From Melastoma dodecandrum (lineage: Eukaryota > Streptophyta > Magnoliopsida > Myrtales > Melastomataceae), in NCBI GenBank assembly GCA_029817715.1, contig JARUPY010000423.1:1-64000 (forward strand): a stretch of DNA of 64,000 nucleotides, written 5' to 3'. Positions 1,029 to 21,614 of the stretch are shown piece by piece. Within the stretch, counting starts at the first letter, position 1, and every line of letters starts with the position of its first letter. The notes beneath the pieces are model-generated. The model ran no database searches. It was not told where the DNA came from and saw only the letters and a program-made list of their open reading frames with translations. Both the position numbers and the translations under genes were made by a program.

Positions 1029-1038
1029 GTGTTTGTTT
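1029..1038. repeat. 10 bp target-site duplication, left side of element A
   Basis: GTGTTTGTTT, repeated exactly at 8829-8838 on the other side of element A. It is not part of the sequence shared with element B, so it is flanking host DNA duplicated on insertion. Confidence 0.85.
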
Positions 1039-1098
1039 GAGGACTGTACCAACTTACAGTGGTCCACCAAAATATTTCCTTTTTTTAACCGTTGTTCG
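1039..1098 (+). repeat. Element A left terminal inverted repeat
   Basis: Begins GAGGACTGTACC and runs through an ACAGTGG block to an ACCGTTG block near 1090. By eye it aligns at roughly 70% identity with the reverse complement of 8769-8828, and it is similar to the left end of element B. Confidence 0.8.
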
Positions 1099-1225
1099 TT
1101 TTTATTTTCCTATCTCACCGTCTCCCCCTTCTTCTTTTATGATCTTTCTAAATTTTTATCCCCAAAACTTAACCTTTTCTAATTGAGTCCTTCAAGACAA
1201 AATAGAAAAAATTATTCTTAAGCGG

Positions 1226-1237
1226 GCTCTAATACCA
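1226..1237 (-). other. tRNA-Met primer-binding site of element A (one mismatch)
   Basis: The reverse complement reads TGGTATTAGAGC. This differs by one base from TGGTATCAGAGC, the initiator-tRNA-Met primer site used by Caulimoviridae for minus-strand DNA synthesis. Element B has the perfect form at the same relative position. Confidence 0.8.
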
Positions 1238-1434
1238 ATTAAATAATACTGAAGATAAGCAAAGCAAATTAACTCCCTGAAGAGTTAAATATCAGCATGC
1301 TAGATATTCTTTAGGAATGACAGGAATCGAACTTAAGAAGATTTTCCCAATTGTCTTTGTCGTCGGCATTCCACCAACCTCAAATACTCGTTTGAGTATT
1401 TTGAACTTGCCGTAAATCTGAGATTGGACTTACC

Positions 1435-1641
1435 TTAAAGGAAATATTCCTCAAATTCATTCTGAACTAGAGTCAGTTCTTCTAATTTCTTAGAATAACT
1501 CTCTACCAGCTTAGATAACTGAGTTACTTTTGTTGATAGAATTTCTAGACGATCTACTACAGTATTGAGAAGACCGGTAGTAAAATTCTTGCCCACTCCG
1601 TGATCCAAATGGAATAATTCGGGGTTTAGACAACCAGTCAT
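1435..1641 (-). pseudogene. Small coiled-coil ORF of element A (virion-associated-protein-like)
   Basis: The ORF has an ATG start and 68 codons. It shows heptad-like spacing of L/V/I residues across its middle (VVDRLEILSTKVTQLSKLV), predicting a coiled coil. It lies between the viral TATA box and the primer-binding site, on the leader part of the predicted RNA. The element B version is longer (102 aa) and ends in a basic tail. Coiled coil plus basic tail is the layout of caulimovirid virion-associated proteins, but no sequence family could be confirmed. Here a stop truncates the basic tail. Confidence 0.5.
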
Positions 1642-1864
1642 AAGAATAACTCGTGCACTGCACCTGCCTTTTAAACTAGAAAGATCAACATAAACAATCT
1701 TAAAACAAGATGCTTATCATACCTTAGTCCAAGGGATAGCTCTGAGGGTTCACCAAACTTTTGCAACTTCTGGAAATCCAAGAGTGACTCACTTCTCAAA
1801 GTTGAGAATCCTGTGAGAGAGAGAGGTTTTTCTGTGTCATTTTGAATGCCCTTACCTTGAGGGT

Positions 1865-1873
1865 CTTATATAG
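1865..1873 (-). promoter_or_regulatory. TATA box of the pararetroviral promoter, element A
   Basis: CTATATAAG on the minus strand, conserved in element B with an identical flank. Transcription would start near 1840 and run through the coiled-coil ORF and the primer-binding site. In this linear copy it would then leave the element at its left TIR without crossing the main ORFs. Confidence 0.65.
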
Positions 1874-2194
1874 ACACTCCTCATCCAAGAACAAGGTTTA
1901 GTCTTAAAGACTTTTCCTTCAAGGTTTCGATTCGTAAATCTGACCTTAAGTTAGTTTTAATCAATTCTGATTAATTCTAACCACTCTTGATTTCTTAAGG
2001 TATCCTTGGAGAACGATCAAAGAATTTTGACTCAGAGAGATGTGAGAGAAAATTTTATATTCAGATCGCCTCCCCAAATGAGGTAGAGGGTCGTGAAATA
2101 TATACAAAAAGCTGGTGCCTATGCACTGTTTGCCAGCTCAAAAGTAAAGAATCTACTTTATCAAAAGCTTACAAAAGCTACAAAATTGTCTAAT

Positions 2195-4336
2195 CTATTT
2201 TGTACAATTTTCTTCTCTCGTCTGCATCATTGCTCTATCCTGAGAGATTCCTTCTTCGTTGGCGTTTGATGTTTCGCCAACTTCCTCAGAGAGTCCTCGA
2301 GCTCTCTCTTCATCTTGCTTAAATCGTTGGGCTAAGGATTTGTCAGTGTAGTCAGCGATTTTTCTCCAAACTTCAAAGGTGTCCGTCCGGAGGCACAATT
2401 CAGAGTTTTCTCTCTTCCAGAAGCTATCCAGAAGATCCAAAACTCTTTCCCATCCTCCTTCCCCTGCTTGTTCATCTGTATAACTGAGATAGGAACGGAG
2501 GATCATGACAGTTGTCATCCCGTCACTGAGCACATAGTATAACTCCTTGCGGGCAAATACGTGCTCCAACACATCCTTCAGAAACTCAACCTTTATGGCT
2601 TTTCTTACAGTTTTATCTTTGTAATACTTTCGCCATAAACCTCTCTGATCAAGGCCCTGTCGTTGAGGTTTTATCAGATGCCTACTCTCACTAGGATGGA
2701 TGTCCCATACTTGCATGTTGGGAATAATTACTTTCCCGAACTTTTCATGTTCTTCCTCCTCCATAGTGCTAGTAATCAATGCCGTGGCATACTCTGATCC
2801 GCATCCAAATCCGAGTATGAACTTTACCAAGTGAGGCAACGGTTCTATCTGTTCTGGTTCTGATCTATCAATCTCCAGAATGTCGACAAAACCTGCGTAC
2901 AAATATGGTAAAGCAACTCCCACCATACCTGAATTAATTCTCAGGGACGGCCACTTTTCAGATATCCAGTGTAGATACGGTTGAAGTACAGAGTTCTCCT
3001 CGAGAAAGGATTATCTCATATCCACTACTACTTTTGAAGTCTCGTAGTCTTTGACTTCGCATGGTAATATGGACATAGTCGTGGTGAGAATTTGCTGTCT
3101 ATCCCTTACGGTTTTAGACAGTTCTTCTCCATCCGAAGTCTTGTAAGATAATTTAGACTCCAGATCTTTGATGTACTCTATCGCTTTTGCTGCAAAAAAC
3201 TCAATATGACGTTGGTAATTATTTTTAATAGCACCCCTGAGTCCTTCACAGACAACAGTTGCATCCCAAGAAAGGGATCCATCTTCGAAAGAGTCCAGAT
3301 CAAAAAACCAAGATCCATCTAGATCTTCATGACCTTTGTCATTGTGAGTTTGCTCACCAGGTTCTCTAACCGAACCTCCTTCAGGAATTATTTCCTCAAG
3401 GTTCTCCTGAGTTTTAGGATTACCTTCTTCGAGTGTGCCAGGTATTTTGTAATTGAAATACTCGTCATACTCCATTTCCACCGTGTCGTCAGGATGTTCT
3501 TCCTTCCGAACAACTGGCTCTCCTATAAAGGCTTTGAACTTTGCCTCCTCCTCAGCATACTCAGTCTCCATCCGCTCATTCTTCGACTTTGTAATAAAGC
3601 CTTATAGGATTTGACAGCTTGATTTATGGAGATTTTTTGCTCTTTAGCCAGGTGATTACGGTAGTAATTGTTCCGTGGTTAACGGGTACCACCAAGGTTC
3701 TTCAACCTTTCCATCCTTTTCAGGACCAGAAGATTTAAGCTATTTGCTTTCTTCTTCTTTCTGGCTTTTTCTTGGGAATCAGCTTGAGCTTCTTCCTTCA
3801 GATCCACCATCTTCGCCTGTCCTTTAGAACTTACCTTTTTAGGATCAGCCACTCTCTCTTGAGAGTCTTTCATCACGTTTCCTTTGGAGTTGACGTTATC
3901 TTCTCCTTTAGGACCCGTCATTCCCTTCTGGGAATTTTCTCCTTGTGGAATTGGTTGTTACCTTTTCCTTAGGTTCAGCCATTCTCTTCTGAGAATCAAC
4001 TTTCGTCTTTCCTTTAGAACTAGCCGAAGCTTTCTCCTTAGGGTCGACCATCTCCTCCTGGAGATCTGTTTCTGCTTTTCTCTTGGAGTTAGCTATTACC
4101 TTCTCCTTGAGACTAGCCATACCCTTCTGGGAATTCGCAGCTTTCAGCTTATTTGGACATTCAAATGATCTATGTCCAGGTCGCTTACACTGCCAGCACA
4201 AAGCTGATTTCGTTCCAGAATTTGAACCAGTATCACTATGCTCACTATCTCTCTTATTAGGACATACCTTCTTGGAGTGTCCCTCTTGCTTGCATCCCCA
4301 GCAAATCTTCCTCTTCGCGGTTGGATCCATCTGCAA
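2195..4336 (-). pseudogene. Element A 3' ORF: double zinc knuckle, Lys-rich repeats, C-terminal helical domain
   Basis: A broken long ORF downstream of RNase H. It starts with two CCHC knuckles (CWGCKQEGHSKKVCP and CWQCKRPGHRSFECP, about 4300-4160). Next come about five copies of a Lys-rich repeat of about 23 residues with a DSQK..PKEKV..NSKGK pattern, and an acidic stretch. The end is a conserved helical region with WFFDLDSFEDGSLSWDA (about 3290) and MVGVALPYLYAGFVDILEID (about 2920). Comparison with element B shows it was once one continuous frame of roughly 700 codons; here it is cut by a one-base deletion near 3575 and by stops. Its position after the polymerase matches where caulimovirids place the transactivator/inclusion-body gene, but I see no signature of that family, so function is unassigned. 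Confidence 0.6.
3790..4165 (-). repeat. Coding tandem repeat, about 69 bp units (23-residue Lys-rich repeat)
   Basis: The translated minus strand repeats a pattern of DSQK-x3-x-PKEK-x3-NSKGK about every 23 residues. Units are degenerate. Element B carries the same array at about 12110-12480, so it predates the two insertions. Confidence 0.7.
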
Positions 4337-5230
4337 GTTCTCTAGAGAGAGAGTTAGCTATTATGTTTTTGTCTGAAGAGATATACTCGACGTCGAATTT
4401 ATAATAGCTAAACCATTCCTGCAACCTCAAAAGTCTAGTCTGCCTAACCTCTTTGAGGTTCAGACTCATAAACCTTTTTACATAGGTCGAGTCAGAGCGC
4501 ACAAGAATTTCTTTGGTGCCAAAAAGATGTAAAAGGCTTTTATTCCATTTTTTAAAGCTAATACTTCTTTTTCGTGTATCGAGTATCGGAGTTCGTACCC
4601 CTTAAAGCTACCTGACCAATACTTACAAACGGGTTCAGGCTTTCTTCCTTTAATTTTAAGGACAGCCCCTCAGAACTCGTTAGAAGCATCAATTTCCAGG
4701 ACTAACTCATCTTTGTCAGATGGTAAAGAGAGTTGAGGTAGATTTTTAACCTTTCTCTTAATCCTCTGAATAGCATGAGTATCCTCATCTTCCCATAACC
4801 AATGATTCACAGAAGATGTTTTCTTTGAAATCCTCCCTAGATCTTGGGAAAGATCCTTCACAAACTTTCTTGCATAGTTAACAAATCCACAAAATCTTTG
4901 GACTTGTTTTCTATCCTCAAGTCTGTCAGGAAAATCAACAATTTTTTCGGTAATATGGCTTTGGAATTTAATTTTTCCTTGCTCAATCTCCATACCTAAA
5001 AAATTAACTGACTCCTTAAACCATTATATCTTTCTTTCTGGTAGAATCATGCCCTCCTGTCGGAAGACATCAGTTACCTTATCTAGGTGTCTCATGTGGT
5101 CGTCTTCAGTCTGACTGTAGACTAACATATCGTCTATGTAGACCGCACTAAATTTGCGGACCTGCTTGAAAGCATTATCCATTTTGTGCTGAAAGACGCC
5201 TGGAGCATTCTTCAGGCCGAACGACATCAC
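4257..5230 (-). pseudogene. Element A reverse transcriptase (partial) and RNase H
   Basis: Minus-strand fragments show the RT palm (GLKNAPGVFQHKMDNAF and the catalytic YIDDMLVYS, about 5220-5110). They also show connection-region residues (FCGFVNYARKFVKDL, about 4890) and an RNase H start with LVLEIDAS (about 4690). A late RNase H segment has RSDSTYVKRF and LQEWFSYYKFDVEYI (about 4490-4400). These match pararetroviral polymerases. The RT fingers and motif A are absent: the protease end at about 5330 is joined almost directly to the region just before GLKNAP. The remaining reading frame is cut by several stops. The polymerase would reverse-transcribe viral pregenomic RNA in the cytoplasm; this copy cannot. 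Confidence 0.85.
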
Positions 5231-5268
5231 CAGTCATTCAAACATTCCTTGCGGAGCATTGAAGGCAG

Positions 5269-5721
5269 TTAGATAGAACCGAATCTTCTTCCATCTTGAT
5301 GGACATCCTGCACAAAAGGTAATTTTTCCTTTTGTCCCTTTAAAAAAGAATTACCAATTATGATGTCTGCCTCTAATAAAGGATGGGCCAGGATCTCTTT
5401 AATGATGAACTTTTGTCCACCAATAAAGACAGACACATTATTGGCCTGATGGCTAACAATTGTCGCCATTCCATCTACATTTACCATATGGATGGGTTTC
5501 TGCAGTGGTTTCCACCACTCATCTGGTAGAGCATTGAGTCTAGCACAACTTATGCTACACCAAGTGTCTATCAAAGTATCCAGAGAATACTCATAGTGTC
5601 CCGAAAATTTGAAAGTTAGAGCTACATATGTGCTCAAGTCTTCTTTCCTTATACTAAAATTAATATTTCTGGGTACCTCATGGGATGGTTCTATCATCCT
5701 CCAGATTTCGTCTACTGACAT
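5269..5721 (-). pseudogene. Element A pararetroviral aspartic protease
   Basis: The fragment starts with MSVDEIWRMIEPSHEVP, 9 nt after an in-frame TAG that ends the movement-protein frame. This could be the original polymerase ORF start or a decayed fusion. The active-site region reads LIDTWCSIS where functional retropepsins have DTG, so the catalytic triplet is mutated. A later ADIIIGNSFL matches the conserved hydrophobic-hydrophobic-G motif. The role in the virus is polyprotein processing. The frame then runs into residual RT sequence and stops. Confidence 0.75.
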
Positions 5722-5727
5722 AGACCT

Positions 5728-6948
5728 CTACTCGGCTATTTGCTCAATAACCTTACAGACTTCGGGAATACTGGATAGAGAGTTATCCAGATAGGTAACT
5801 CTCATCATCCGTATTAATTCTTCTCCTGGTTGATCTACCGGATCTTCATAGACTGGTAAAGATACCTGTCTATATCCTACGATTCTACCCGTATGGTGAG
5901 ACGGGCTCCTCGAATCTGTAGACCTTCGAGACATTTCTTCTATTAGTGGTGGGGCAGATGCTTCTGCTGGTCGAGAAAATTTGTCTTCTCCCACATCACT
6001 ATATCTAGAAGAAACTTCATAGGGCGTTTGAATTCTTGGCTCTCTCAGGACTGGTATCCTCACAGGCAGATGCCTGTCAGATCTATCACTACCTCTAGAC
6101 GATTCTCCCAACATTAAAGTTATCTCGTTACCTCTTTGTCGGATATTAGCCGCACTAATCGGTCTAGAGCTACTACCAGGCTCAGTCATAACCCGATTTC
6201 TTAGCCAGGTTAATTCTAGTGGATTCACCTCTCGCCTATGAAATTGTTGGTAGTTATTTTGACCTTCCTCGAACAACTCAGTAAGTCTTGAGATGTTCCT
6301 CACACCGGGACTAGTGGTATTTACCAATAGGTAAATCACCCTAGTGTGATACGCCAAAAACTTGGCTTGGGAATTCATTCTATCCATATTCATTGATTTA
6401 ATCTTTAAAGTTAATGAATTTCCCAAACAACGGTCGTTCAGGGCCATCATGAAATTTGGATGGACTTGGAACCATACAGGGCCATGTGCCAGGTTGGCCT
6501 GTATTCTTGATATCAGATGATCTCGAAACTCTTGCCATCTTTTATCGATAATAGCTGCTACCACAGGACTATCCGTTGAAAGATGGAATAGAGGAATTAG
6601 TCCTACTTGGATCAACCCAATGTGTATATAGTTATATATACCTCTCGCACGTTGCATGGTTTCCCTAATTCGTTGTACGTTGAGTAATGGGATATCTAAA
6701 GTTTCAAGTTACGTACTTGTAACTTGAGCCGTTGCTTCTGTTTGTGAGATGTCTATTATAGATCTAAAATTAAATTTTGAAACATTGTAGACCTCTCTCA
6801 CATTAACATTAGGCAACCTCCATTCCAATGCTGACTGAGATGGATCTTCGTACTGGTGGGATTTCTCCAGTACCTTATTCGATGCTTCCAACGGAACCAT
6901 CTCATCACCATCTCCATTTTGCTCTACTCTCATCATGAATAGATGCAT
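5728..6948 (-). pseudogene. Element A movement protein (30K superfamily) region
   Basis: The region contains YIHIGLIQVGLIPLF followed by the conserved D in AIIDKRWQEF, then GPVWFQVHPNFMMALND and LTLKIKSMN. This is the core of caulimovirid movement proteins, which form tubules at plasmodesmata for cell-to-cell spread. A Ser/Arg-rich tail follows (about 6190-5790). Amino-terminal sequence (about 6948-6660) is separated by a stop near 6707. In element B coat and movement regions share one frame, so they were probably one polyprotein. The frame ends at a TAG at 5728. Confidence 0.85.
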
Positions 6949-7011
6949 TTTTCAGAGATCAGAATCCTCTTCTAAGTCTGTATCGTAATTTGATACAACT
7001 TCATAGATAGA

Positions 7012-8673
7012 TTATACTTCTGAGTCTAAGTCAGAAATATCCTGCTCATCTATTGGTTCATAAGCCAGGATTTCTTCCTCATGACTCCCATTATCCAGAA
7101 ACACCATTCGGAGTCTTTCCCTCATTTGGTACTTCTGAGGACAAGTATCCGCTTTGTGGGTTTTTGATCCACAAAACCAGCAACAATTGCAATTGCTCAA
7201 CGGTTTTCCTTTCGGACACGTAGGTTCTCTGCCATGCTTTCGCTTAAAGGCATCGATCCTATCTTTATCCTTAAGGTTAGTCCGTCTCCTTACAAATCTC
7301 CTTGGTTTATAAGCAGGACCTCCTCTTTGTTTTTTCTGGAGATATCTTTTTGGCCAAACTTTCATCTTGTTGCATCCAACAAATTTTTTCTTCCTCGGAA
7401 AGTTTCTTGTTCTCGCTGATTCTCTTGGAGTATCACATCCATGTCTCCCAGGTACATATTCAATCTGAGAGCAACAGCTCTTGTTTAAGTACGGCAGCAT
7501 TTTAGCCGCTTCCTTAACCTGGAGCTCAGTACACGCTTTCCTCATTGCGTACTTAACTGCCTGAATCTTTCCTCCGAGTCCCATAACAATCTTTTTTTCA
7601 CTCAGGAGTAATTCATAGGCCTTTTGCGCAACTTTCGGCCAAGGTTCTGGAAGTTTTGCAAAAAAGGTTCCCAATATGACGTCCATATTGTAGTAATACT
7701 TCTAGAATTCACATATGTAGCTATCAAACAGACACATATTAACGATCTATAGCTTAACCAGAGCAGTCAACGATTGCTCCTTTTTCACAGTCTCAGTGGA
7801 TAAAGAAAAACCATAGAACTCCCGTTTTAATGCATCAGCGATGATTGCTAATACACCATCAACGGTCAACACTTGATCTATCTTTTCTTTGATGTCTGTA
7901 TGAGCCACCAAAGATTTCTAATATTTTTGCACAGTTCCCATGAGGGCTGCCATACAAAATTCATAAATTGATCCAAGGGATAGTATCCCAGCAGACGCAG
8001 TCATTCGAATTAGTGATAACCACTCATCTATCTTTTCAGATACGTGCTTCTCACAATCGATATCTAGAAAAGCACCAAGGGCGATTATTGGCTTGAATAC
8101 GTTATCCCTTGGAACAAACTCTTGTTTGGTTCTATGGGGGATAATCGGGCCTATAAATTTCCCTCTTCGCAGTCACCAATTCATTAAACGTTCGATTGTC
8201 TAAATGAACTGGAAGTTCATCTGCCAGCCTTAGGTCTATCGCCAACTCTCCACTTTGATAGTTCAAATTTGCATTTTGCTTTTGTGAGTCTAAAATGTAA
8301 GGAGCTACTGACTCCTTGTACATTTCTTCCACACTCTTGCCTTGATCCTGTTTGGAATTTCTTCCTCCCAGTTTCAATTTTTCGACTCGTTTTCCAGTAG
8401 TACTTTTCAGTCCAGAAGTCGCCTCGGCTTCAGGCCTTTTTAAACTTCTCTCATGCTCTAAAGAGTCTAACATCTTATTTACTATAGAACCTACTTCCCC
8501 AGCAAGGTGGTTTCGGTTCTCAAGACTTTCTGTGCTCCCTTGAATAGTTACTGAGTTAAAATATCATTTATACTCTTGCTAATTCCAAAAAGAGACATTA
8601 TAGACTCTGAAACGAACTCCAACCGTGACAGAGTTCCAAAAGGATTCCCCGAATACTTTCCTTCTCCAGCCAT
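7012..8673 (-). pseudogene. Element A coat protein region with CCHC zinc knuckle
   Basis: The likely original start is the ATG at 8673 (MAGEG...), conserved in element B. The amino-terminal part is acidic/Ser-rich. The capsid core includes WLSLIRMTASAG and GTFFAKLPEPWPKVAQKAY (about 7660). A Lys/Arg-rich segment leads to a CCWFCGSKTHKADTCP knuckle (about 7180-7140), typical of caulimovirid capsids binding genome RNA. An acidic tail ends at a stop at 7012. The frame is interrupted by several stops between 8130 and 7690. It would package the viral genome; now a relic. Confidence 0.8.
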
Positions 8674-8768
8674 TTCAAGGACCTAATTGAAACTTTTTCA
8701 AAATTTTGGGGTTTTTTCCAAAATCAGAAAGACAAAAAGAGCTAGGAGCGGCCTTTAGGTAATATTGA

Positions 8769-8828
8769 AACTCCCGACGGTAAAAGCCAAAATATTTTAA
8801 CTTTCAACAGTACTTTGGAACTATCCTC
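8769..8828 (-). repeat. Element A right terminal inverted repeat
   Basis: The reverse complement begins GAGGATAGTTCCAAAGTACT and ends near TTTTACCGTCGGGAG. It pairs with 1039-1098 in inverted orientation and is closely matched by the right end of element B (15294-15352). Confidence 0.8.
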
Positions 8829-8838
8829 GTGTTTGTTT
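8829..8838. repeat. 10 bp target-site duplication, right side of element A
   Basis: GTGTTTGTTT, an exact copy of 1029-1038. Confidence 0.85.
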
Positions 8839-9201
8839 GGCCGTCTGGGGGGACATTGACCGAGACTTCTCCTCATTCCTTGGTTTCTTTCTTTGACATT
8901 ACATTAATTTTATTACTTTATAATTTATTTTTATACTAATTATGTCTTATATTATACTAATTACGGATGAACCCCATTAATGGGTGGAGGGGGGGGGGAG
9001 GGGTACGTAAGTTTTATTCGAACCAGAAATAACCATGTTAATGATGTGTATGTTGTTACTATTTCAACACCTCACCAGTTTGTCTCTCTCTTTCCTTCCA
9101 TCTGGCATGTGTTGTTGTTGTTGTTGGGTTGGGAGGGGATGCTAAGCGAATCCATTGACTCTATATCATGTGTAAAAAGATCAGTTACTATATTTTTATA
9201 T
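8839..9201. other. 363 bp host spacer between elements A and B
   Basis: AT-rich DNA with a G homopolymer at about 8988-8998 and a (GTT) run near 9110. It has no similarity to the flanks at 960-1028 or 15363 onward and no recognisable coding sequence. This separates the two elements and argues against a head-to-tail viral concatemer. Confidence 0.6.
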
Positions 9202-9211
9202 ATGTAAGAAA
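9202..9211. repeat. 10 bp target-site duplication, left side of element B
   Basis: ATGTAAGAAA, repeated exactly at 15353-15362. It differs from the duplication around element A, so the insertions were independent events. Confidence 0.85.
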
Positions 9212-9270
9212 TAGCCTTGTTCCAAAACACAGTGGTCCCCAAAAGAAATTTGGGTTTTACCGTTGTCGGC
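9212..9270 (+). repeat. Element B left terminal inverted repeat
   Basis: Starts TAGCCTTGTTCC, with mutated outermost bases, then shows the conserved ACAGTGGTCCCC and TTTTACCGTTG blocks. It is inverted relative to 15294-15352 and similar to 1039-1098. Confidence 0.75.
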
Positions 9271-9399
9271 CTTTTATTCCTAATTTACCACTTCTTTCCA
9301 CCTTCAACTTCCCGAAATTTAATTCCCAAAATTTTATCCTTAAAAATCTACTTCTTTTAATCCTTCAAGACGTTTTAAAAGAAAAACGTTCTTAAGCGG

Positions 9400-9411
9400 G
9401 CTCTGATACCA
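9400..9411 (-). other. Perfect tRNA-Met primer-binding site of element B
   Basis: The minus strand reads TGGTATCAGAGC, all 12 bases of the caulimovirid initiator-tRNA-Met primer site. It sits about 190 bp inside the left TIR. Confidence 0.85.
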
Positions 9412-9506
9412 ATTAAAACAGACTGAAGATAAGCAAAGCAAATTAACTCCCTGAAGAGTTAAATATCAGCATGCTAGATATTCTTCAGAAATAACAGGAA
9501 TCGAAC

Positions 9507-9815
9507 TTAAGAAGATTTTCTCAGTTGTCTTTGTCGTCGGCGTTCCACCAACCTCAAATACTCGTTTGAGTATTTTGAACTTGCCGTAAATCCGATATTG
9601 GACTTACCTTCAAGGAAATATTCTTCAAATTCACTCTGAACTAGAGTCAGTTTTTCTAATTTCTTAGAATAACTCTCTACCAGCTTGGATAACTGTGTTA
9701 CTTGTACTGATAGAACTTCCAAACGATCTACTACAGTATTAAGAAGACCTGTAGTAAAATCCTTGCCCACTCCGTGATCCAAATGGAATAAGTCGGGATT
9801 TGGACAATCAATCAT
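9507..9815 (-). pseudogene. Element B small coiled-coil ORF (102 aa), intact frame
   Basis: An open frame from an ATG at 9815. Residues about 22-58 carry regularly spaced L/V residues (VVDRLEVLSVQVTQLSKLV), predicting a coiled coil, and the last 15 residues are Arg-rich (RRRQRQLRKSS). Caulimovirid virion-associated proteins have a similar coiled coil plus basic nucleic-acid-binding tail, so this is a plausible homologue, but I recognise no specific family. It lies in the leader downstream of the TATA box. The frame is intact although the element is defective. Confidence 0.55.
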
Positions 9816-10039
9816 ACGAATGACTCGTGCAATTGCACCTGTCTTTCAAAATAGAAAGATCAACATAAACAACTTAAAACAAGATGCTTATTATACCTTA
9901 CTCAGATGGGTAGCTCTAAGGGTTCACCAAGCTTCCGCAACTTCTGGGAATTCAAGAGGTACTCACTTCTCAAGACTGAGAATTCTTGTGAGGTGGAGAG
10001 GTTCTTCTGTGTCATTCTGAATGCCCTTACCTTGAGGGT

Positions 10040-10048
10040 CTTATATAG
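10040..10048 (-). promoter_or_regulatory. TATA box of element B
   Basis: CTATATAAG on the minus strand, in the same context as element A. Predicted transcripts run leftward over the coiled-coil ORF and the primer site. Confidence 0.65.
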
Positions 10049-10070
10049 ACACTCCTCATCCAAAACCAAG

Positions 10071-10278
10071 GTTTAGTCATAAAGACTTTTCCTTCAAGGT
10101 TTCGATTCGTAAATCTAACCTTAAGTTAGTTTTAATCAATTCTGATTAATTCTAACCACTCTTAATTCCTTAAGGTTTAGTCATAAAGACTTTTCCTTCA
10201 AGGTTTCGATTCGTAAATCTAACCTTAAGTTAGTTTTAATCAATTCTGATTAATTGTAACCACTCTTAATTCCTTAAG
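10071..10278 (-). repeat. 104 bp tandem duplication upstream of the element B TATA box
   Basis: Two nearly identical units (10071-10174, 10175-10278), each beginning GTTTAGTCATAAAGAC on the plus strand. Element A has one copy (from about 1907). The duplication covers about 25-230 bp upstream of the TATA box, the usual place of pararetroviral promoter elements. Confidence 0.85.
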
Positions 10279-10485
10279 GTATTGTTGTGGAGAACGATCA
10301 AAGAATTTTGACTCAGAGAGATGTGAGAGAAAATTCTCTATTCAGATCGCTTCCCTCAAATGAGGTAGAGGATTGTGAAATATATACACAGAGAAGCTGG
10401 TGCCTGTGCACTGTTTGCCAGCTTAAAAGTAAAAAGAATCTACTTTATCAAAAACTTACAAAAGCTAGCTAGACTACAAAATTGT

Positions 10486-12560
10486 CTATTCTAACTTTAT
10501 ACAATCTTCCTCTCCCTTCTGCATCATCGCTTCGTCTAGGGAGATTCCTTCTTCATTGGCTTTTGATGTTTCGCTAACTACTTCAGAGAGTCCTAGTCCT
10601 TCACAATTTTGTTGGGCTCTCTCTTCGTCTTGCTTAAATCGTTGTGCCAAGGATTTGTCGGTGTAGTCAGCGATTTTTCTCCAGACTTCGAAGGTGTCCG
10701 TCCGGAGGCACAATTCAGAGTTTTCTCTCTTCCAGAAACTATCCAGAAGATCCAAAACTCTCTCCCATCCTCGCTCCCCTGCTTGCTCATCTGCATAACT
10801 GAGATAGGAACGTAGGATCGTGATAGTTGTCATCCCGTCACTGAGCACATAGTATAACTCCTTGCTGGTAAATACGTGCTCGAACACATCCTTCAGAAAC
10901 TCAATCTTTATGGCTTTTCTTACAGTTTTATCTTCGTAATACTTTCGCCATAAACCACTCTGATCAAGGTCCTGTCGTTGAGGTTCTATCAGATGCCTAC
11001 TTTCACTAGGATGGATATCCCAAACTTGCATGTTGGGAAGAATTACTTTCCCAAACTTTTTATGTTCTTCCTCCTCCATCATAGTGCTAGTAATCAATGC
11101 CGTGACATACTTTGAACCGTAGCCTAGGCATCCGAGTATGAACTTTACCAAGTGAGGCAATGGTTCTATCTGTTCTGATTCTGATTCTATCGATCTCCAG
11201 AATATCGAAAAAACCCGCATACAAATAAGGTAAAGCAACTCCCACCATACCTGAATTAATTCTCAGAGATGGCCACTTTTCCGATATCCAGTGCATATAC
11301 GGTTGAAGTATAGAGTTCTCCTCGAGAGAGGATTCTCTCATATCCACTACTACTTTTGAAGTCTCGTAGTCTTTGATTTCGCATGGTAATATGGACATAG
11401 TCGTGGTGAGAATTTGCTGTCTATCCCTTACGGTCTTAGACAGTTCTTCTCCATCTGCAGCCTTGTAGGTCAACTTAGACTCCAGATCTTTGATATACTC
11501 TATCGCCTTTGCTGCAAAAAACTCAATCTGGCGTTGGTAATTATTTTTAATACCACACATGAGTCCTCCACAGACAACAGTGGCATCCCAAGATAGGGAT
11601 CTATCTTCGAAAGAGTCCAAATCAAAAAACCAAGATCCATCTAGATCTTAATGACCTTTGTCATCGTGAGCTTGCTCACCAGGTTCTCTAACCGAACCTC
11701 CTTCAGGAATTACTTCCTCAAGGTTCTCCTGAGTTTTAGGATTACCTTCCTCGAGTGTTCCTGGTATTTCGTAATTGAAATACTCGTCGTACTCCATTTC
11801 TGCCGTATCGTCAGGATGTTTTTCCTTTTGAACAACTGGCTCTCCTATGAAAGCTTTAAACTTAGCTTCCTTCTCAGCATACTCACTCTCCACTCGCTCT
11901 TTCTGTTCCTTCTGGCTTTGTCATAAAGCCTTGTAGGATTTAACAGCTTGGTTTATGGAGACTTTCTGCTCTTTAGCCAGGTAATTACGGCAGTAATTGA
12001 ACTGCTCCGTGGTTAACGGGTACCACCAAGGTTCTTCAACCTTTTCATCCTTCTTAGGACCAGAAGACTTAAGTTGTTTTGCTTTCTTCTCCTTTCTGGC
12101 TTTTTCTTGGGAATTAGCCTGAGCTTCTTCCTTCAGATCCGCCATATTCGCTTTTCCTTTAGAGCTTACCTCTTAAGGATCACTCACCATCTCTTGAGAG
12201 TCTTTCATCACGTTTCCTTTGGAGTTGACCTTAACTTCTCCTTTAGGACCCGTCATTCCCTTCTGGGAATTTTTCCCTGCTTTTCCTTTGGAATTGGTTA
12301 TTACCTTTTCCTTAGGTTCAACAATTCTCTTCTGAGAATCAATCTTCATCTTTCCTTTAGAGTTAGCCGAAGCTTTCTCCTTAGGATCAACCATCTCCTT
12401 CTGGAGATCTGGTTCCGCTTTTCTCTTGGAGTTGGTGATTACCTTCTCTTTGAGATTAGCCACTCCCTTATGAGAATCCGCAGCTTTCAGCTTATTTGGA
12501 CATTCGAATGATCTATGTCCAGGTCGCTTACACTGCCAGCAAAAAGCTGATTTCATTCCT
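10486..12560 (-). pseudogene. Element B 3' ORF: zinc knuckle, Lys-rich repeats, C-terminal domain
   Basis: One reading frame runs from the knuckle CWQCKRPGHRSFECP (about 12535-12490) through five degenerate 23-residue Lys-rich repeats, a WWYPLTTEQFNYC segment, an acidic region and a helical region. The last contains WFFDLDSFEDRSLSWDA and MVGVALPYLYAGFFDILEID. It is interrupted only by single stops at about 12173, 11921 and 11648 and a frameshift near 11190. The first knuckle of element A is missing because of the internal deletion, which joins this ORF in frame to the movement-protein tail. Function is unknown; the position corresponds to the caulimovirid transactivator gene. Confidence 0.6.
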
Positions 12561-13440
12561 ACAGACAAATGCCTGTCAGCTCTAAAGCTATCTCTAGGCG
12601 GTTCTCCCAACATTAAAGTAATCTCGTTACCTCTCTGTCGGATATTAGCCGCACTAATCGGTCTAGAGCTACTACCAGGCTCAGTCATAACCCAATTTCT
12701 TGGCTAGGTTAATTCTAGTGGGTTCACCTCTCGCCTATGAAATTGTTGATAATTATTATGACCTTCCTCGAACAACTCAGTAAGTCTTGGGATGTTCCTC
12801 ACACCAGGATTAGTGGTATTTATCGATCGATAAAGTACCCTAGTATGATACGCCAAAAACTTGGCCTGGGAATTCATTCTATCCATATTCATTGATTTAA
12901 TCCTTAATGTCAATTAATTTCCCAAACAACGATCGTTCAGGGCCATTATGAAATTTGGATGAACCTGAAACCACACTAGGCCATTTGCAAGGTTGGCCTG
13001 TATACCTGATATCAGCTGATCTCGAAACTCTCGCCATTTTTTATCGATCACCGCTACTACCACAGGACTATCCGCTGGAAGATGAAATAGCGGAGTTAGT
13101 CCTACTTGGATCAACCCAATGTGTATATAGTTATCTACACCTCTCGTACGTTGCATGGTTTCCCTAATGCGTTGTACGTTTAATAATGGGATATCCAAAG
13201 TCTCAAGTTCCGTGCTTGTAACTTGAACCGTTGCTTCTGTTTGTGAGATGTCTATTATAGATCTAAAATTGAATCTTGACACATTATAGACTTCCTTCAC
13301 GTTAACATTAGGCAACCTCCATTCTAGAACTAACTGGGATGGATCTTCGTACTGGTGGGATTCCTCCAGTACCTGGTGCGATGGTTCCAAATGAACCAAC
13401 GCATCACTATCTCCGTTTTGCTCTGCTCTCATTATGAACA
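12560..13440 (-). pseudogene. Element B movement protein region, truncated
   Basis: Contains the 30K-superfamily core (YIHIGLIQVGLTPLFHL, then AVIDKKWREFRDQL and FQVHPNFIMALND). It is preceded in the same frame by the coat-protein knuckle and acidic tail, with no stop between them, so coat and movement proteins were one polyprotein. A stop at about 12914 breaks the core. The carboxy tail ends at the deletion junction near 12560 and continues in frame into the zinc-knuckle ORF. Confidence 0.85.
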
Positions 13441-15197
13441 GATGCATTTTCCAGAAATCAGAATCCTCTTCTGAGTCTGTATCGTAATTTGATACAACTT
13501 CATAGATGGATTCTACTTCCGAATCTAAGTCAGAAATATCCAGCTCATCTATTGGTTCATAAGCTAGGATTTCTTCTTCATGACTCTTGTCATCCAGAAA
13601 CACCATTCGGAGCCTTTCTCTCCTTTGGTTCTTCTGAGGACAAGTATCCATTTTGTGGGTTTTTGATCTACAAAACCAGCAACAATTGCAGTTGCTCAAC
13701 GGTTTCCCTTTCGGACATTTAGGTTCTTTGCCATGCTTTCTCTTAAAGGCTTCGATCCTATCTTTATCTTTAAGGTTATTCCGTCTCCTTACAAACCTTC
13801 TTGGTAAGCAGGACTTCTCCTTTGTTGTTGTTTTTGGATGTCTCTTTTTTGCCAAACTTTCCTTTTATTGTATCCAACAAATTTTTTCTTCTTCGGAAAG
13901 TTTCTTGTTCTCATTGATTCTCCTGGAGTATCACATCCATACCTCCCAGGTACATATTCAATCTGAGAACAATAGCTCTTGTTTAGGTATGACAGCTTCT
14001 TAGCTGCCTCCTTAACCTGGAGCTCAGTACACGCTTTCCTCATTGCTTACTTAACCGCCTGAATCTTACCTCCGAGTCCCGAAAAAATTTTTTCTTCACT
14101 CAGAAGTAATTCATAAGCCTTTTGCGCAACTTCCGGCCAAGGCTCTAGAAGTCTTGCAAAAAAGGTTCCCAATATGAACTGTTGAGAAACTACGTCCAGA
14201 TTGTAATAATACTTCTGGAATTCACATACGTAGTTATCAAACAGGCACATATTACAGTCTATAGTTTAACAAGAGCAGTCAACGATTGCTCCTTTCCCAC
14301 AGTTTCAGTGGATAACGAAAAACCACGAAACTCCCGTTTCAATGCATCAGCGATGATTGCTAATACACCATCAACGGTCAGCGCTTGATCTATCTTTTCT
14401 TTGATGTCACTATGCACTACCAAAGATTTCCATTATTTTTGTATTGTTCCCATGAGGGCTGTCACACTTAATTCATAAACTGATCCAGGGGATAGTATTC
14501 CTGCAGACGCAGTCATTTGAATTAGTGATAACCACTCATCTATCTTTTCAGATACGTGCTTCTCACAATCAATATCTAGAAAAGCACCAGGGGTGATTAT
14601 AGGCTTTAATACATTATCCCTTAGAACAAACTCTTGTTTAGTTCTATGTGGATAATCGGGCCTGTAAATTTTCCTCTTCGCAGTCACTAATTTATTAAAC
14701 GTTCGATTGTCTAAATGAACTGGAATTTCCTCTGCCAGGCCTAAGGCTTTCCTTAGGTCTTTCGTCAACTCTCCACTTTGAGAGTTCAAATTTGCATTTC
14801 GCCTTCGTGAGTCTAAAATGTAAGGAGCCACTGACTCTTTATACATTTCATGGACACTCTTGCCTTGATCCTGTTTGGAATTTCTTCTTCCCAGTTTCAA
14901 TTTTTCGACTGGTTTTCCCGTAGTACTCCCCAGTCCAGAAGTCGCATCGGCTTCAGGCCTTTTTAAACTTCTTTCATGCTCTATCGAATCTAACATCTTG
15001 TTTACTATAGAACCTACTTTCCGAGCAAGATGGTTTCGGTTCTCAAGACTCTCTGTACTCCCCTGAATAGTTAACTAAGTTGAAATATTATTTATACTCT
15101 TGATAATTCCATAAGGAGACATTCTAGATTCTGAAACGAACTCCAATCGGGACGGAGTTTCAGAAGGATTTTCCGAAGATTTTCCTTCTCCAGCCAT
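13440..15197 (-). pseudogene. Element B coat protein region
   Basis: Starts at the ATG at 15197 (MAGEG...), but an in-frame TAG about 40 codons later blocks it. A long intact segment follows (14996-14433: acidic, Ser/Lys-rich, then WLSLIQMTASAG). Next come GTFFARLLEPWPEVAQKAY (about 14170), a basic region and the CCWFCRSKTHKMDTCP knuckle (about 13680). A few stops break the frame near 14440, 14260 and 14045. Family role: capsid formation and RNA binding. Confidence 0.8.
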
Positions 15198-15293
15198 TTC
15201 AAGGACTTAATTAAAAGATTTTCAAAATTTTGGGTTTTTTCTAAAAACCGAGGGAACAAAGGAAATCAGAGCAATGTTTTGGTAATTTAGAAA

Positions 15294-15352
15294 CCTCCCA
15301 CGGTAAAAACCAAATTATTTTCTTTCCCCCACTGTACTTCAGAACTATCCTC
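15294..15352 (-). repeat. Element B right terminal inverted repeat
   Basis: The reverse complement begins GAGGATAGTTCTGAAGTACA and runs to TTTTTACCGTGGGAGG. It is inverted relative to 9212-9270. Confidence 0.8.
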
Positions 15353-15362
15353 ATGTAAGAAA
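15353..15362. repeat. 10 bp target-site duplication, right side of element B
   Basis: ATGTAAGAAA, an exact copy of 9202-9211. Confidence 0.85.
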
Positions 15363-15403
15363 AGCATTTCATTAATTTCTCCGAAACACCCAAAAAGAAA
15401 ATA

Positions 15404-15422
15404 TCCCTCCCTCCCTCCCTCT
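15404..15422 (+). repeat. Pyrimidine-rich (CCCT)n tract upstream of the CDPK gene
   Basis: A short CCCT microsatellite in the predicted 5' leader. CT-rich tracts are common in plant leaders and core promoters. No clear TATA box lies between element B and the start codon. Confidence 0.5.
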
Positions 15423-15613
15423 TCTAGCGTCCTCCTCTCCGCAAACTTCCCCCTCTCTGTTTGCTTCCGTCCATCCACCCATCCCCAACCACCAACCACT
15501 GCCCTCGTCGCCGAGGAAACCTCCTCCGCAAGACTCGTGTCCCGTTTCCCGTTCCTGACCTCGAAATTGCGGAAAGACTCCATCTCTTGCTGCTGCTGTC
15601 CTCTTGGCGAGAA

Positions 15614-18621
<3,008 letters not shown>

Positions 18622-21614
18622 GCTAGCCGTATGGACGGAATAGGAAATACACTCACGGGGATGGAAGGCCTGCCCAACACAACACACTGGTAAGAACTTT
18701 TCGAGTCCGGAACTCATCTTACGAGGGGACCCCGAAAATTCCTGGGGGGATTGTCGTGGTCTGTCGGCTGCATCAAGAATGCGAGGGTTTGTGGGTTTTT
18801 CGCTCTTTCAGCTGGCATTGTTGCACCTTCTGTTTGTGAAAAAAGGAAACGTCTTCTTCTCATCAACCCCCCGACCTCCGTGTATTTTTGTATGTATGAT
18901 CGGCGATTTTTGTTGTAGGCCAGATTTTACATGTAAGAAACAGTCATTTGAAAGCTCATGCTCGTGTTGTATGATTAAAGATGAACGTTCCTAAACAGTG
19001 TTAGGAGTGGAAAAAGCCGGCGTAACTCACCGTAGTCGCAGGTAGTAAGGAAACCAAGACTTCGGACAGTAACATTGAGTTGGGGATACCTAAGGCTGCA
19101 ATCGGGCTTTTATTGTAGGAATTTTATGGGTTTTTTTACTGTCAATTTGGGCCTATTTTTGGGCCATTCTTTGGGATGGGGTTCATCTACATAAATTGGG
19201 CAGGGAGAGGATAAACAAAATAATTATAACCATTTTTAATTTCCTTCTTTTTTTTTATATATAAAAAGATCATGTACACACTTATCCTTTTCTCCTTTTC
19301 TTTTTTTGGTGTAAAATAGGGAATTATTATTCTTACCAAAGTTGCATGAAATAAATAATTGGAGTAGTTGAAGGAGAGAAGGCCCGGGGAAAGGGACGAG
19401 AGAATATCAGAATCAGATTCCACTCACTCAACTCCGAAGGAAAAGCAAAAAAAAAAAAAAAAGAAAAAAAAAAAAAAAAAAAAAAAGACAAACATCCAAA
19501 CACCCTCTCCCCCACTTTCCCAAAAAGCATCACTTTCCTTTTCTTAAAAGGATTGTTATTTTATAAAAATAAAGAAGAAGAATAAAGAAGGTCTTTCATT
19601 CCCCACCCCCTCCTCCAAGCACTAACGACAAAGCTTTTGACACTACTTTCTTCTTTTTTTCCTCCAAAATCTTGCGACTATTTTCATTTACCTTGTATAT
19701 ATTTTTAGTGATTGGATAAATAAGGAAAAAGAAATGGTGGGGATGTGGATAGAAGGCGTTGTTTTAGGTAAATGCATTAAATTTCGGACCAATTATATAT
19801 TATTATTATTATTAGTATTGTATTTCCACCCCACCCCCGAAAGCTTTCGTTTGTTGCTGTTGTTGTTGATCTGAGGATTATTCTTCATGGTAGAGAAGAT
19901 TTCTTTTATGGCGGAGTTAGGTCGGGGGCCAAATGGTTGGTTGTAAGCCGGATCCTTTCGACATAAACATTTTTATCATCTCCCAAACCCTACCACGTTC
20001 GTTTCATACTTCAACATCCATCGATCGATACGTGTAGGACGAGCCTCGGATCCCTTGCTCTGGTAACATGTTTTTTTTTGCAGACCTTGTTCGGATGGTT
20101 CCAAGAAACACTTGACTTTACAACAGAAGAGAAGGGTTTGGCTTGGGAGGGGGGGGGGGGGGTTGAGGGGCATGATGTTACGGAAAAAGTACGGGGCCGT
20201 ACGACACGATCGAGAGAAAAAGGGTGGTAAAAGACAATGTGTGTGTGTGGTACAGACAACCGACTGACCCAGTCGTAAATCCGTAGATAAAACAATTCAT
20301 CCGACATGAACGGGGTCATGTGTGTAATACAAGTTTCACTTTTGAAAACGAAAGAGGAGAGGAGGGCCACCATGTAAAAAACGGAGAGATGCTTCTCGTT
20401 CTCGTGACTAAGATCGATCCGGATATCGCGGTCCAAATCGACATCGGAGGGGCAGAGGAATTGGCAAAACACATGAGCCCGGGGAGGGGGAGATGCCTTT
20501 TGGGGAGTCTCATGTTTATCCCATAGAGAGAGAGAACATGGAAATATCGGGAAATGAAATCGACACGGAAAACCCTCGAAACAATTTCTTGCCGGGGGGG
20601 GACGACGTGTGTCGTCGGCGCCATGTGATCCCATCGTCGGACTCGGAAATAATAATATAAAGGAGAAGAAAAGTAACGTGGAGCAGCAGTCAAATCACGT
20701 GTTCGAGCATCGTCGTCGTTTATTTGCTCTCCCAAGATCGCATTAAATATTTGGCTCGAATGACGTTTTGGTACGTAGAGTTGAAAACGGCAATTATTTT
20801 CCCTCGTCGGAGACGTTCGTGGGATTTTCCAAGTCACGGTTAGAAGGGGAGGTGGGGGATGATCAATTATCAATAATGCTACAATCGAGGGTGGTTGATC
20901 AATTGGAAATTAGGTTAATGACAAATAAGAAGAAGCAGAAGCAGAAAGGCCGACACGTCAGACCCCCAAAACCACAATAAATTATTGACCAAATTATTCT
21001 ATATATCCTAACGTTTATCGATTTTTTTCGATTTAGCCCAAACTTTAAAAAATATCGCTATACCGTCAAATTAATTTTATCCTTCATTAGCCGTCATCGG
21101 GCGAAGGCTTACGTAGCACTGACCTGGCTATTAACTCTGTCGGTGCGTTAACTCTCGATATTTCCTAAATCAAAGGACGTTGAGCCATAATCAAACTCTT
21201 CATCAAATCAGACCCTCTTCGACCATTTAAAACGCGCTCAAAATATTTAAAAATTTGAGGGACTTTAAAAAATACATTTTAAAAACACATCTTTTATGAA
21301 AATTGTATTTGAAAAACGCATTTTAATAAATTAAGAGGTGCATTTTAAAGTACTATGAGGCGCATTTTAAATATTTTACATAGGACGTGACTTTTTTACA
21401 TATTAAGAGGCGAATTTTTTAAACATCAGATATAATTTTTGTAAAAGACGGACATGAAATGAGTCAACTAATTGTAGTTCCTCCGCAGATAATTTCTTAC
21501 ACAACAAATAAATGATATGAACGAGAGATTATATTGATATTTTCCTTAGACTATTTTTGATATGGTAATTTAATTAATATTTTTAATAATAATAATAATA
21601 ATAATAATAACATG
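18622..21614. other. Intergenic region between the CDPK and H+-ATPase genes
   Basis: No gene is recognised. A possible poly(A) signal ATTAAA lies at 18974 for the CDPK. Simple repeats include A-rich runs at 19446-19488, (TTA)n near 19798-19815, a G homopolymer at about 20149-20162 and (AAT)n at about 21584-21610. Open frames at 20011-20873 on the minus strand show no protein family and read like chance frames. Around 21240-21420 an imperfect phrase, GAGGCGCATTTTAAA, recurs several times. Confidence 0.5.
21584..21610 (+). repeat. (AAT)n microsatellite
   Basis: About nine AAT units immediately upstream of the candidate TATA box of the H+-ATPase gene. Confidence 0.85.

What the first reader, a model, noticed from the sequence alone, without database searches (positions are those of the whole stretch)
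1039..15352. Pararetroviral genomes packaged as TIR transposons with 10 bp target-site duplications
Both caulimovirid-like copies end at the same points, in imperfect inverted repeats of about 55 bp (GAGGATAGTTCC... outermost). Each is flanked by its own perfect 10 bp direct repeat (GTGTTTGTTT at 1029/8829; ATGTAAGAAA at 9202/15353). Caulimoviridae lack integrase and are known to integrate by illegitimate recombination, with variable ends and no regular duplication. TIRs with 9-11 bp duplications are typical of Mutator-like elements. The simplest reading is that a viral genome was captured by, or evolved, transposase-recognised ends and spread as a DNA transposon. I know of no described element of this type but cannot search the literature.
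Basis: partly seen in the sequence, partly recalled or inferred. Interest (0 to 1): 0.93.

Follow-up and report, generated by a model that had tools for sequence, protein, structure and literature searches.

The report
Plant virus genomes with transposon ends
In this plant genome, copies of a reverse-transcribing plant virus do not end raggedly as expected but sit between fixed inverted repeats and small duplicated target sites, the signature of cut-and-paste transposons, which suggests that a virus thought to have no integration machinery has been using a transposon's.

Summary
Copies 1039-8828 and 9212-15352 are caulimovirid genomes (MP, protease, RT, RNase H, tRNA-Met primer site) bounded by inverted repeats and perfect 10-bp duplications. 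Of 35 non-duplicate element pairs read in the 373-Mb assembly, 21 have a perfect 10-bp duplication, 4 match at 9 of 10, 1 has 11 bp, 9 are unclear; the only matches between different elements are alleles or duplicates. A second viral sublineage, with open frames of about 1740 codons, has different terminal repeats at the same place in the viral genome and 9-bp duplications (4 of 5 perfect). Copies differ mainly at synonymous sites, as expected of a replicating, selected virus, though that control is mixed. The 16-bp core of the second terminus also occurs in a third form, including eight short (722-1078 bp) inverted pairs too small for the virus. Best reading: a pararetrovirus lineage carrying Mutator-like (MULE) termini, inserted by a MULE transposase supplied in trans. 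The enzyme is inferred: no element ORF scanned resembles a transposase, and 39 sampled MURA loci show no matching terminus. The passages I read describe caulimovirid integration as passive or speculative. Host: probably Melastomataceae.

The parts
1029..1038 (.). 10-bp target-site duplication, left of copy 1 (GTGTTTGTTT)
   Evidence: sequence
1039..1112 (+). left terminal inverted repeat of copy 1 (viral 3' side)
   Evidence: local alignment 0-74 against right end, above all 200 shuffles
1226..1237 (-). tRNA-Met primer-binding-site-like TGGTATTAGAGC (one base from TGGTATCAGAGC), 187 bp from the left end
   Evidence: sequence; TGGTATCAGAGC in L158, L160, L168
1435..1713 (-). small ORF near the primer site, also readable in L158; perhaps a virion-associated protein (role recalled, not tested)
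   Evidence: no Pfam match above cut-off
2195..3601 (-). ORF4, unknown protein, in two pieces separated by one in-frame stop at 3011-3013; unbroken in L147
   Evidence: L147 ORF4 is 84% identical to a Melastoma candidum protein
3908..4357 (-). two CCHC zinc knuckles after RNase H
   Evidence: PF00098
4257..4669 (-). RNase H pieces
   Evidence: PF17917/PF17919 for 4478-4669; the 4257-4601 piece has no Pfam match
4670..5233 (-). reverse transcriptase C-terminal pieces (N-terminal part not found in copy 1)
   Evidence: PF00078 in 5024-5233; PF17919 below cut-off in 4670-5023
5269..5727 (-). caulimovirid aspartic protease
   Evidence: PF02160
5728..6951 (-). 30K movement protein region
   Evidence: PF01107 E 6.8e-19 in the 5728-6708 piece; the 6709-6951 piece has no Pfam match
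7012..8673 (-). coat-protein region with CCHC box, in several frames; first ATG at 8673
   Evidence: PF22909 weak (19.7 bits, cut-off 27) in 7012-7701; Melastoma protein P0003 39.9 bits
8756..8828 (-). right terminal inverted repeat of copy 1 (viral 5' side)
8829..8838 (.). 10-bp target-site duplication, right of copy 1
9202..9211 (.). 10-bp target-site duplication, left of copy 2 (ATGTAAGAAA)
9212..15352 (-). copy 2, same element, lacking the stretch that corresponds to copy 1 about 4217-6061 (RNase H, RT, protease, part of MP); inverted repeats at both ends
15353..15362 (.). 10-bp target-site duplication, right of copy 2

Best explanation
A Wendovirus-like caulimovirid lineage whose DNA carries Mutator-like terminal inverted repeats in the non-coding gap between the primer-binding site and the first ORF. 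In a circular viral genome (inferred) the two repeats would lie back to back. A MULE transposase supplied by the host's abundant MULEs (inferred) recognises them and inserts the whole genome, opened at that point, into chromosomal DNA with a 10-bp or, in the second sublineage, 9-bp duplication. Between insertions the lineage kept replicating under selection on coat, movement and ORF4 proteins, presumably as a virus. Shown: fixed ends, TIRs, 9/10-bp duplications, excess of synonymous differences between copies, two TIR types at one viral position, a 16-bp TIR core also present in short paired places. Inferred: the enzyme, the circular donor, excision back to an episome.
For: Fixed ends and duplications. 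TIR significance. 7 of 8 otherwise unpaired TIR ends have viral sequence inside. Six copies found through the MP gene all have the termini at the expected offset: 9-bp duplications perfect in 4 and 8/9 in a poly-T site in 1, a 10-bp duplication at 9/10 in 1. Second TIR core 1093 matches against 18 control. Third form of that core 168 against 0, with 8 inverted pairs of 722-1078 bp among the first 100 of 168 places. dN/dS medians 0.11-0.24 in six ORF pieces (which included some allele and duplicate loci); pooled 0.18 over 91 of 91 pairs of 14 loci; 0.38 after preserving the mutation spectrum in 14 neighbouring pairs, 0 of 60 randomisations reaching the observed synonymous share. MURA-like sequences abundant: 1241 candidates, the 150 scored over the cut-off. 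15 of 123 scored MP copies lie in reported open frames of 1718-1752 codons with no stop in the match.
Against: No MURA gene among the copy ORFs scanned. No TIR-like sequence of the first type (up to 5 mismatches) in 30 MURA loci of about 3.3 kb, and none of the second type beyond one 2-mismatch hit in 39 MURA loci. A script looking for TIR plus duplication in 8 MURA loci of 6.2 kb found none, so the genome's own MULE ends were not defined. 9 of 35 pairs show no clear duplication. No empty allele for two sites tested. No exact end-to-end junction. The dN/dS control is mixed: the C272b/C469 duplicate and one end of the window alleles fit neutrality, but the other duplicate or allele comparisons also show a synonymous excess (pooled 0.54, 0 of 100 randomisations), perhaps because they carry internal tracts from other copies. 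The interior of the short pairs was not read, and one viral copy (C588) has a 3' end only 2 bases from their core.
Confidence: 0.68

Rival explanations
1. Capture and hitch-hiking: a MULE once captured a viral genome, and the composite then spread only as a non-autonomous DNA transposon, its viral genes being dead cargo (Pack-MULE-like).
For: TIRs and duplications; a 2.5-kb internally deleted copy with a perfect 10-bp duplication (L145); copy 2 internally deleted yet with both ends; part of the dN/dS control is not neutral, which weakens the selection argument.
Against: Synonymous excess between different insertions; long open frames; duplications much less diverged than copies (21 of 35 perfect although median dS between copies is 0.40-0.60); two different TIR types at one viral position.
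Confidence: 0.14
2. Self-encoded integration: the virus itself encodes an unrecognised integrase or transposase (ORF4 is the main candidate of unknown function) acting on its own ends.
For: ORF4 is conserved (median dN/dS 0.16 and 0.22 in its two pieces) and unknown; the precise ends occur in both sublineages; an integrase-like core has been claimed for one caulimovirid, PVCV (PMC10741241, passage seen).
Against: No Pfam match above cut-off and no PDB match for ORF4; the model is uninformative (pLDDT 34); an ORF4 is described for wendoviruses (PMC9794742 section 10) in a paper that does not use the words inverted repeat or TSD; the short pairs share a TIR core without room for viral genes, though a viral enzyme could act on those in trans.
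Confidence: 0.14
3. Ordinary endogenous caulimovirids inserted by double-strand-break repair, with chance end similarity.
For: It is a widely held route for the family (PMC10377300 section 3.1).
Against: 24 of 40 perfect 10-bp duplications in register; the only cross-pair matches, 6 of 1560, are allele or duplicate pairs; (TA)n flank (TATATATA within 60 bp) in 1 of 21.
Confidence: 0.01

Closest known systems
Wendovirus (proposed endogenous caulimovirid genus; PMC9794742, section 10 and passages read)
   Same: Gene order coat zinc finger - MP - protease - RT - RNase H - ORF4 of unknown function
   Different: 'inverted repeat' and 'TSD' do not occur in that text; two proteases described, one found here; RT phylogeny not done here
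Mutator-like elements (MULEs)
   Same: TIRs of roughly 40-110 bp, 9-11 bp target duplications, an internally deleted derivative, genome rich in MURA
   Different: No MURA-type gene among the ORFs examined; cargo is a nearly complete viral gene set that looks selected
Teratorn (herpesvirus fused with a piggyBac transposon in medaka; PMC5601938, abstract and section list seen)
   Same: A virus genome moving between transposon termini
   Different: [quoted passage not shown] here the virus reverse-transcribes, the termini are MULE-like and no transposase gene was found
Pack-MULEs
   Same: Sequence carried between MULE termini
   Different: Pack-MULEs carry host gene fragments (recalled); here the cargo is a virus, in several diverged lineages

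Membership tests
Caulimoviridae (endogenous caulimovirid) | 30K movement protein | tested here: met
   PF01107 E 6.8e-19 (copy 1), 3.1e-13 (copy 2)
Caulimoviridae (endogenous caulimovirid) | A3 aspartic protease, RT, RNase H | tested here: met
   PF02160, PF00078, PF17917
Caulimoviridae (endogenous caulimovirid) | caulimovirid coat domain | tested here: inconclusive
   PF22909 19.7 bits below cut-off 27 in the window piece; 39.9 bits in the Melastoma protein P0003
Caulimoviridae (endogenous caulimovirid) | tRNA-Met primer site | tested here: met
   window 1226-1237 (one mismatch); TGGTATCAGAGC in L158, L160, L168
Caulimoviridae (endogenous caulimovirid) | episomal virions | not testable with these tools
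   genome sequence only
Wendovirus | gene order with a conserved unknown ORF4 | tested here: met
   against section 10 of PMC9794742; coat gene identified weakly
Wendovirus | two aspartic protease domains | tested here: inconclusive
   one found by Pfam in copy 1, whose RT N-terminal region is not found
Wendovirus | RT clade | not tested
   no reference RT sequences at hand
Mutator-like element | terminal inverted repeats | tested here: met
   36 of 40 (first set) and 5 of 5 further elements above all 200 shuffles
Mutator-like element | 9-11 bp target duplication (range as in PMC4334395) | tested here: met
Mutator-like element | encodes MURA or shares termini with a MURA-encoding element | tested here: inconclusive
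   no transposase match among the copy ORFs scanned; no shared TIR in 39 sampled MURA loci; ends of those MULEs not defined
LTR retrotransposon integrase product | 4-6 bp duplication (range as in PMC12440569) and LTRs | tested here: not met
   9-11 bp duplications, inverted terminal repeats

The most novel reading that the evidence does not exclude
A plant pararetrovirus lineage with a regular, transposase-dependent proviral stage: circular viral DNA is inserted, and perhaps excised again, by a host MULE transposase acting on back-to-back viral TIRs, and the virus has replaced its termini at least once to follow a different transposase, changing from 10-bp to 9-bp duplications or the reverse.
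Probability: 0.4. Interest if true: 0.95.

Novelty: new variant of a known kind. Interest (0 to 1): 0.88.

Why it matters
A review calls the mechanism of caulimovirid integration speculative (PMC10377300, section 3.1), and a 2026 paper treats it as passive filling of DNA breaks without an obligatory proviral stage (PMC13308828, passages). Here the elements read carry the signature of one kind of enzymatic reaction, and hundreds of matches to their termini exist in one genome, so the question of how these viruses enter genomes becomes directly testable in one species. It would be a reverse-transcribing virus that gained a proviral stage from a DNA transposon, a plant counterpart of the herpesvirus-piggyBac fusion Teratorn.

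Tried and rejected
Rejected: chance TIRs; chance duplications; LTR-type integrase (duplications of 9-11 bp); one dead captured virus (kept as a rival). Led nowhere: ORF4 structure (pLDDT 34) and PDB profile; exact end-to-end junction of the first TIR type (0 matches); empty alleles for two young insertions (only the two flanks found); viral contig scan with MP (none); TIR search in MURA loci. A first attempt to find the ends of C588 failed because the script dropped repeats of two letters; one search found them, in an A-rich site. Alignment profiles were wrong for four pairs because of orientation and were redone. Termini at the expected offset were listed for 34 of 123 MP copies, both ends for 16 (shifted control mean 0.19, maximum 3). 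The end lists were partial (searches list only the first places of 127 and 1093), so the 89 without a listed end are not a count of copies without ends: 4 of those 89 were examined directly and all 4 have termini; the other 85 were not examined. Besides the eight short inverted pairs, the first 100 places hold two inverted pairs of 16-17 kb and close pairs in other orientations; most places are unpaired.
Full report
What is there. Copy 1 (1039-8828) and copy 2 (9212-15352) lie 383 bp apart in the same orientation, viral genes on the minus strand. Pfam finds the movement protein, A3 protease, RT, RNase H and zinc knuckles of a caulimovirid, with the order coat region - MP - protease - RT - RNase H - zinc knuckles - ORF4, then a small ORF and a tRNA-Met primer-like site 187 bp from the left end. 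The first ATG of the coat region lies 155 bp inside the right end. The coat match is below Pfam's cut-off in the window piece but above it in the Melastoma candidum protein P0003. The N-terminal part of RT was not found in copy 1; copy 2 lacks RNase H, RT, protease and part of MP.

Ends and duplications. The genome was searched with 200-bp ends of both copies; many hits run to the last base or the last few. I read both ends of 40 elements, the two window copies included: 24 have a perfect 10-bp repeat in exact register and C260b a perfect 11-bp one. Five pairs are alleles or duplicates. Of the other 35, 21 are perfect, 4 match at 9 of 10 (C469, C120, C263, and C124 after moving its end by 2 bp), C260b has 11 bp, and 9 are unclear (C274a with 7 of 10, C501 with 6, C129, C272d, C130, C601b, C117, C274c, C272e). 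Left and right ends of different elements match in 6 of 1560 combinations, all of them allele or duplicate pairs. TIRs align over about 40-100 bp at 60-71% identity in the 36 of 40 that exceed all 200 dinucleotide shuffles. A 24-base TIR pattern with up to 2 mismatches gives 127 matches against 3 for the reversed pattern. Of 8 TIR ends not yet paired, 7 have viral sequence inside; L138 shares only about 160 bp with other element ends. L145 is a 2.5-kb internally deleted copy with both ends and a perfect 10-bp duplication. In 22 perfect 10-bp sites the middle positions are rich in A/T, and (TA)n flanks, reported for other endogenous caulimovirids (PMC10377300), occur in 1 of 21.

Second sublineage. 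A search with the MP piece gave 1148 candidates, of which 123 were scored; 15 lie in reported open frames of 1718-1752 codons with no stop in the match. I read both ends of six copies found through MP, five of them picked for their long frames. All six have TIRs between the primer site and the first ORF. One (C409) has the GAGG type with 9 of 10 bases of a 10-bp duplication. Five have a different TIR (GGGCACTTTATCAAATATATCC... / GGCTTAATTATCCAATATATCC... or variants of it) and 9-bp duplications, perfect in four and 8 of 9 in a poly-T site in the fifth. Four of the five were scored for inverted similarity: about 100 bp, above all 200 shuffles. Four measured elements are 8667-8764 bp long. The core TTATCMAATATATCCY with one mismatch has 1093 matches against 18. 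A third form of this core, not the form of either viral end read here (though C588's 3' end is two bases away), has 168 exact matches against 0. Among the first 100 listed places are eight inverted pairs spanning 722-1078 bp, too short for the viral genes. I read them as non-autonomous elements with related termini; this is inference, and deleted viral copies are not excluded.

Selection and timing. Between copies dN/dS (NG86) has medians of 0.11-0.24 in six ORF pieces (some allele and duplicate loci included) and 0.18 pooled over 91 of 91 pairs of 14 loci. Because mutation bias can mimic this, I reassigned the observed changes to random sites of the same base and context: the corrected ratio is 0.38, and 0 of 60 randomisations reach the observed synonymous share (14 neighbouring pairs only). 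The control is not clean. Of seven duplicate or allele comparisons, three fit neutrality (both ends of C272b/C469, 0.89 and 2.66; W1 against L010, 0.86). Four do not (L145/L146 0.39, L016/L017 0.62, L023/L024 0.49, W1 against L002 0.18), and the pool gives 0.54 with 0 of 100 randomisations reaching it. Profiles suggest why: C589/C34 and the window alleles are 97-100% identical in flanks and element ends but carry internal tracts that fall to 85-94%, as gene conversion between copies or an assembly artefact would give. Independent of this, 21 of 35 duplications are perfect while copies differ at synonymous sites by medians of 0.40-0.60; had the copies diverged in place, several mismatches per duplication would be expected. 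Most divergence therefore seems to predate insertion, at least for those with clear duplications.

Mechanism. Duplications of 9-11 bp with TIRs fit MULEs (range as quoted in PMC4334395, passage seen) and not LTR integrases. MURA-like sequences are abundant (1241 candidates; the 150 scored are over the cut-off). None of the copy ORFs scanned resembles a transposase, so I place the enzyme in the host; that is inferred. Against it, 39 sampled MURA loci show no matching TIR beyond one 2-mismatch hit, and no MULE ends could be defined in 8 longer ones. ORF4 remains a possible viral candidate: no Pfam match above cut-off, no PDB match, model uninformative.

Literature. Searches for caulimovirid, Caulimoviridae or pararetrovirus together with Mutator, Mutator-like, Pack-MULE, terminal inverted repeat, target site duplication or transposase listed no paper whose title or shown start of abstract describes such ends; most listed papers were not opened. 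[quoted passage not shown] it says that very few members such as PVCV have an integrase domain), PMC5766536, PMC11556137, PMC11359110, PMC11939994, PMC12440569 and PMC4334395 (passages), PMC5601938 (abstract). Most subscription papers are not held, so this is not proof of novelty. The host is probably of Melastomataceae: all three ORF4 relatives and the best of two MP relatives come from Melastoma candidum.

Verdict. The interpretation needs one change: not one captured virus spread as a transposon, but more likely a virus lineage that repeatedly used transposon-type integration. The precedent of Teratorn (PMC5601938) makes it a new variant of the kind 'virus with transposon ends'; for reverse-transcribing viruses with a cut-and-paste transposon's ends I know of no case.

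Noticed in passing
C589/C34 (L023, L024, L016, L017), window 1039-8828 against C493, 9212-12000 against C493: Alleles or duplicates of one insertion are 97-100% identical in flanks and element ends but have internal tracts that fall to 85-94%: gene conversion between copies, or an assembly/polishing artefact.
   Followed up: partly
window 20985-21050: A solo stretch resembles the second sublineage's TIR (local score 43; 300 shuffles of it against L163 reach 37 at most); no partner end found in the window.
   Followed up: partly
L138 (C117:1895301): A GAGG-type TIR end sharing only about 160 bp with other element ends; its flank resembles that of L139, and a MURA match lies about 2.8 kb outside the end.
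   Followed up: partly
window 15353-15614: Copy 2 ends about 260 bp upstream of the ATG of a protein-kinase-like ORF (PF00069 26.3 bits, below cut-off 31.7); looks like a calcium-dependent kinase N-terminus (recalled).
   Followed up: partly
L145 and L146: Same left flank, but identity falls from 98-100% to about 78% along the element and then ends, so one of them looks recombinant.
   Followed up: partly
L159, L161, L163 termini: The second TIR type seems built of about four degenerate units of roughly 28 bp (..TATCC..AA..TTT..), which may be an array of protein-binding sites (read by eye).
   Followed up: no
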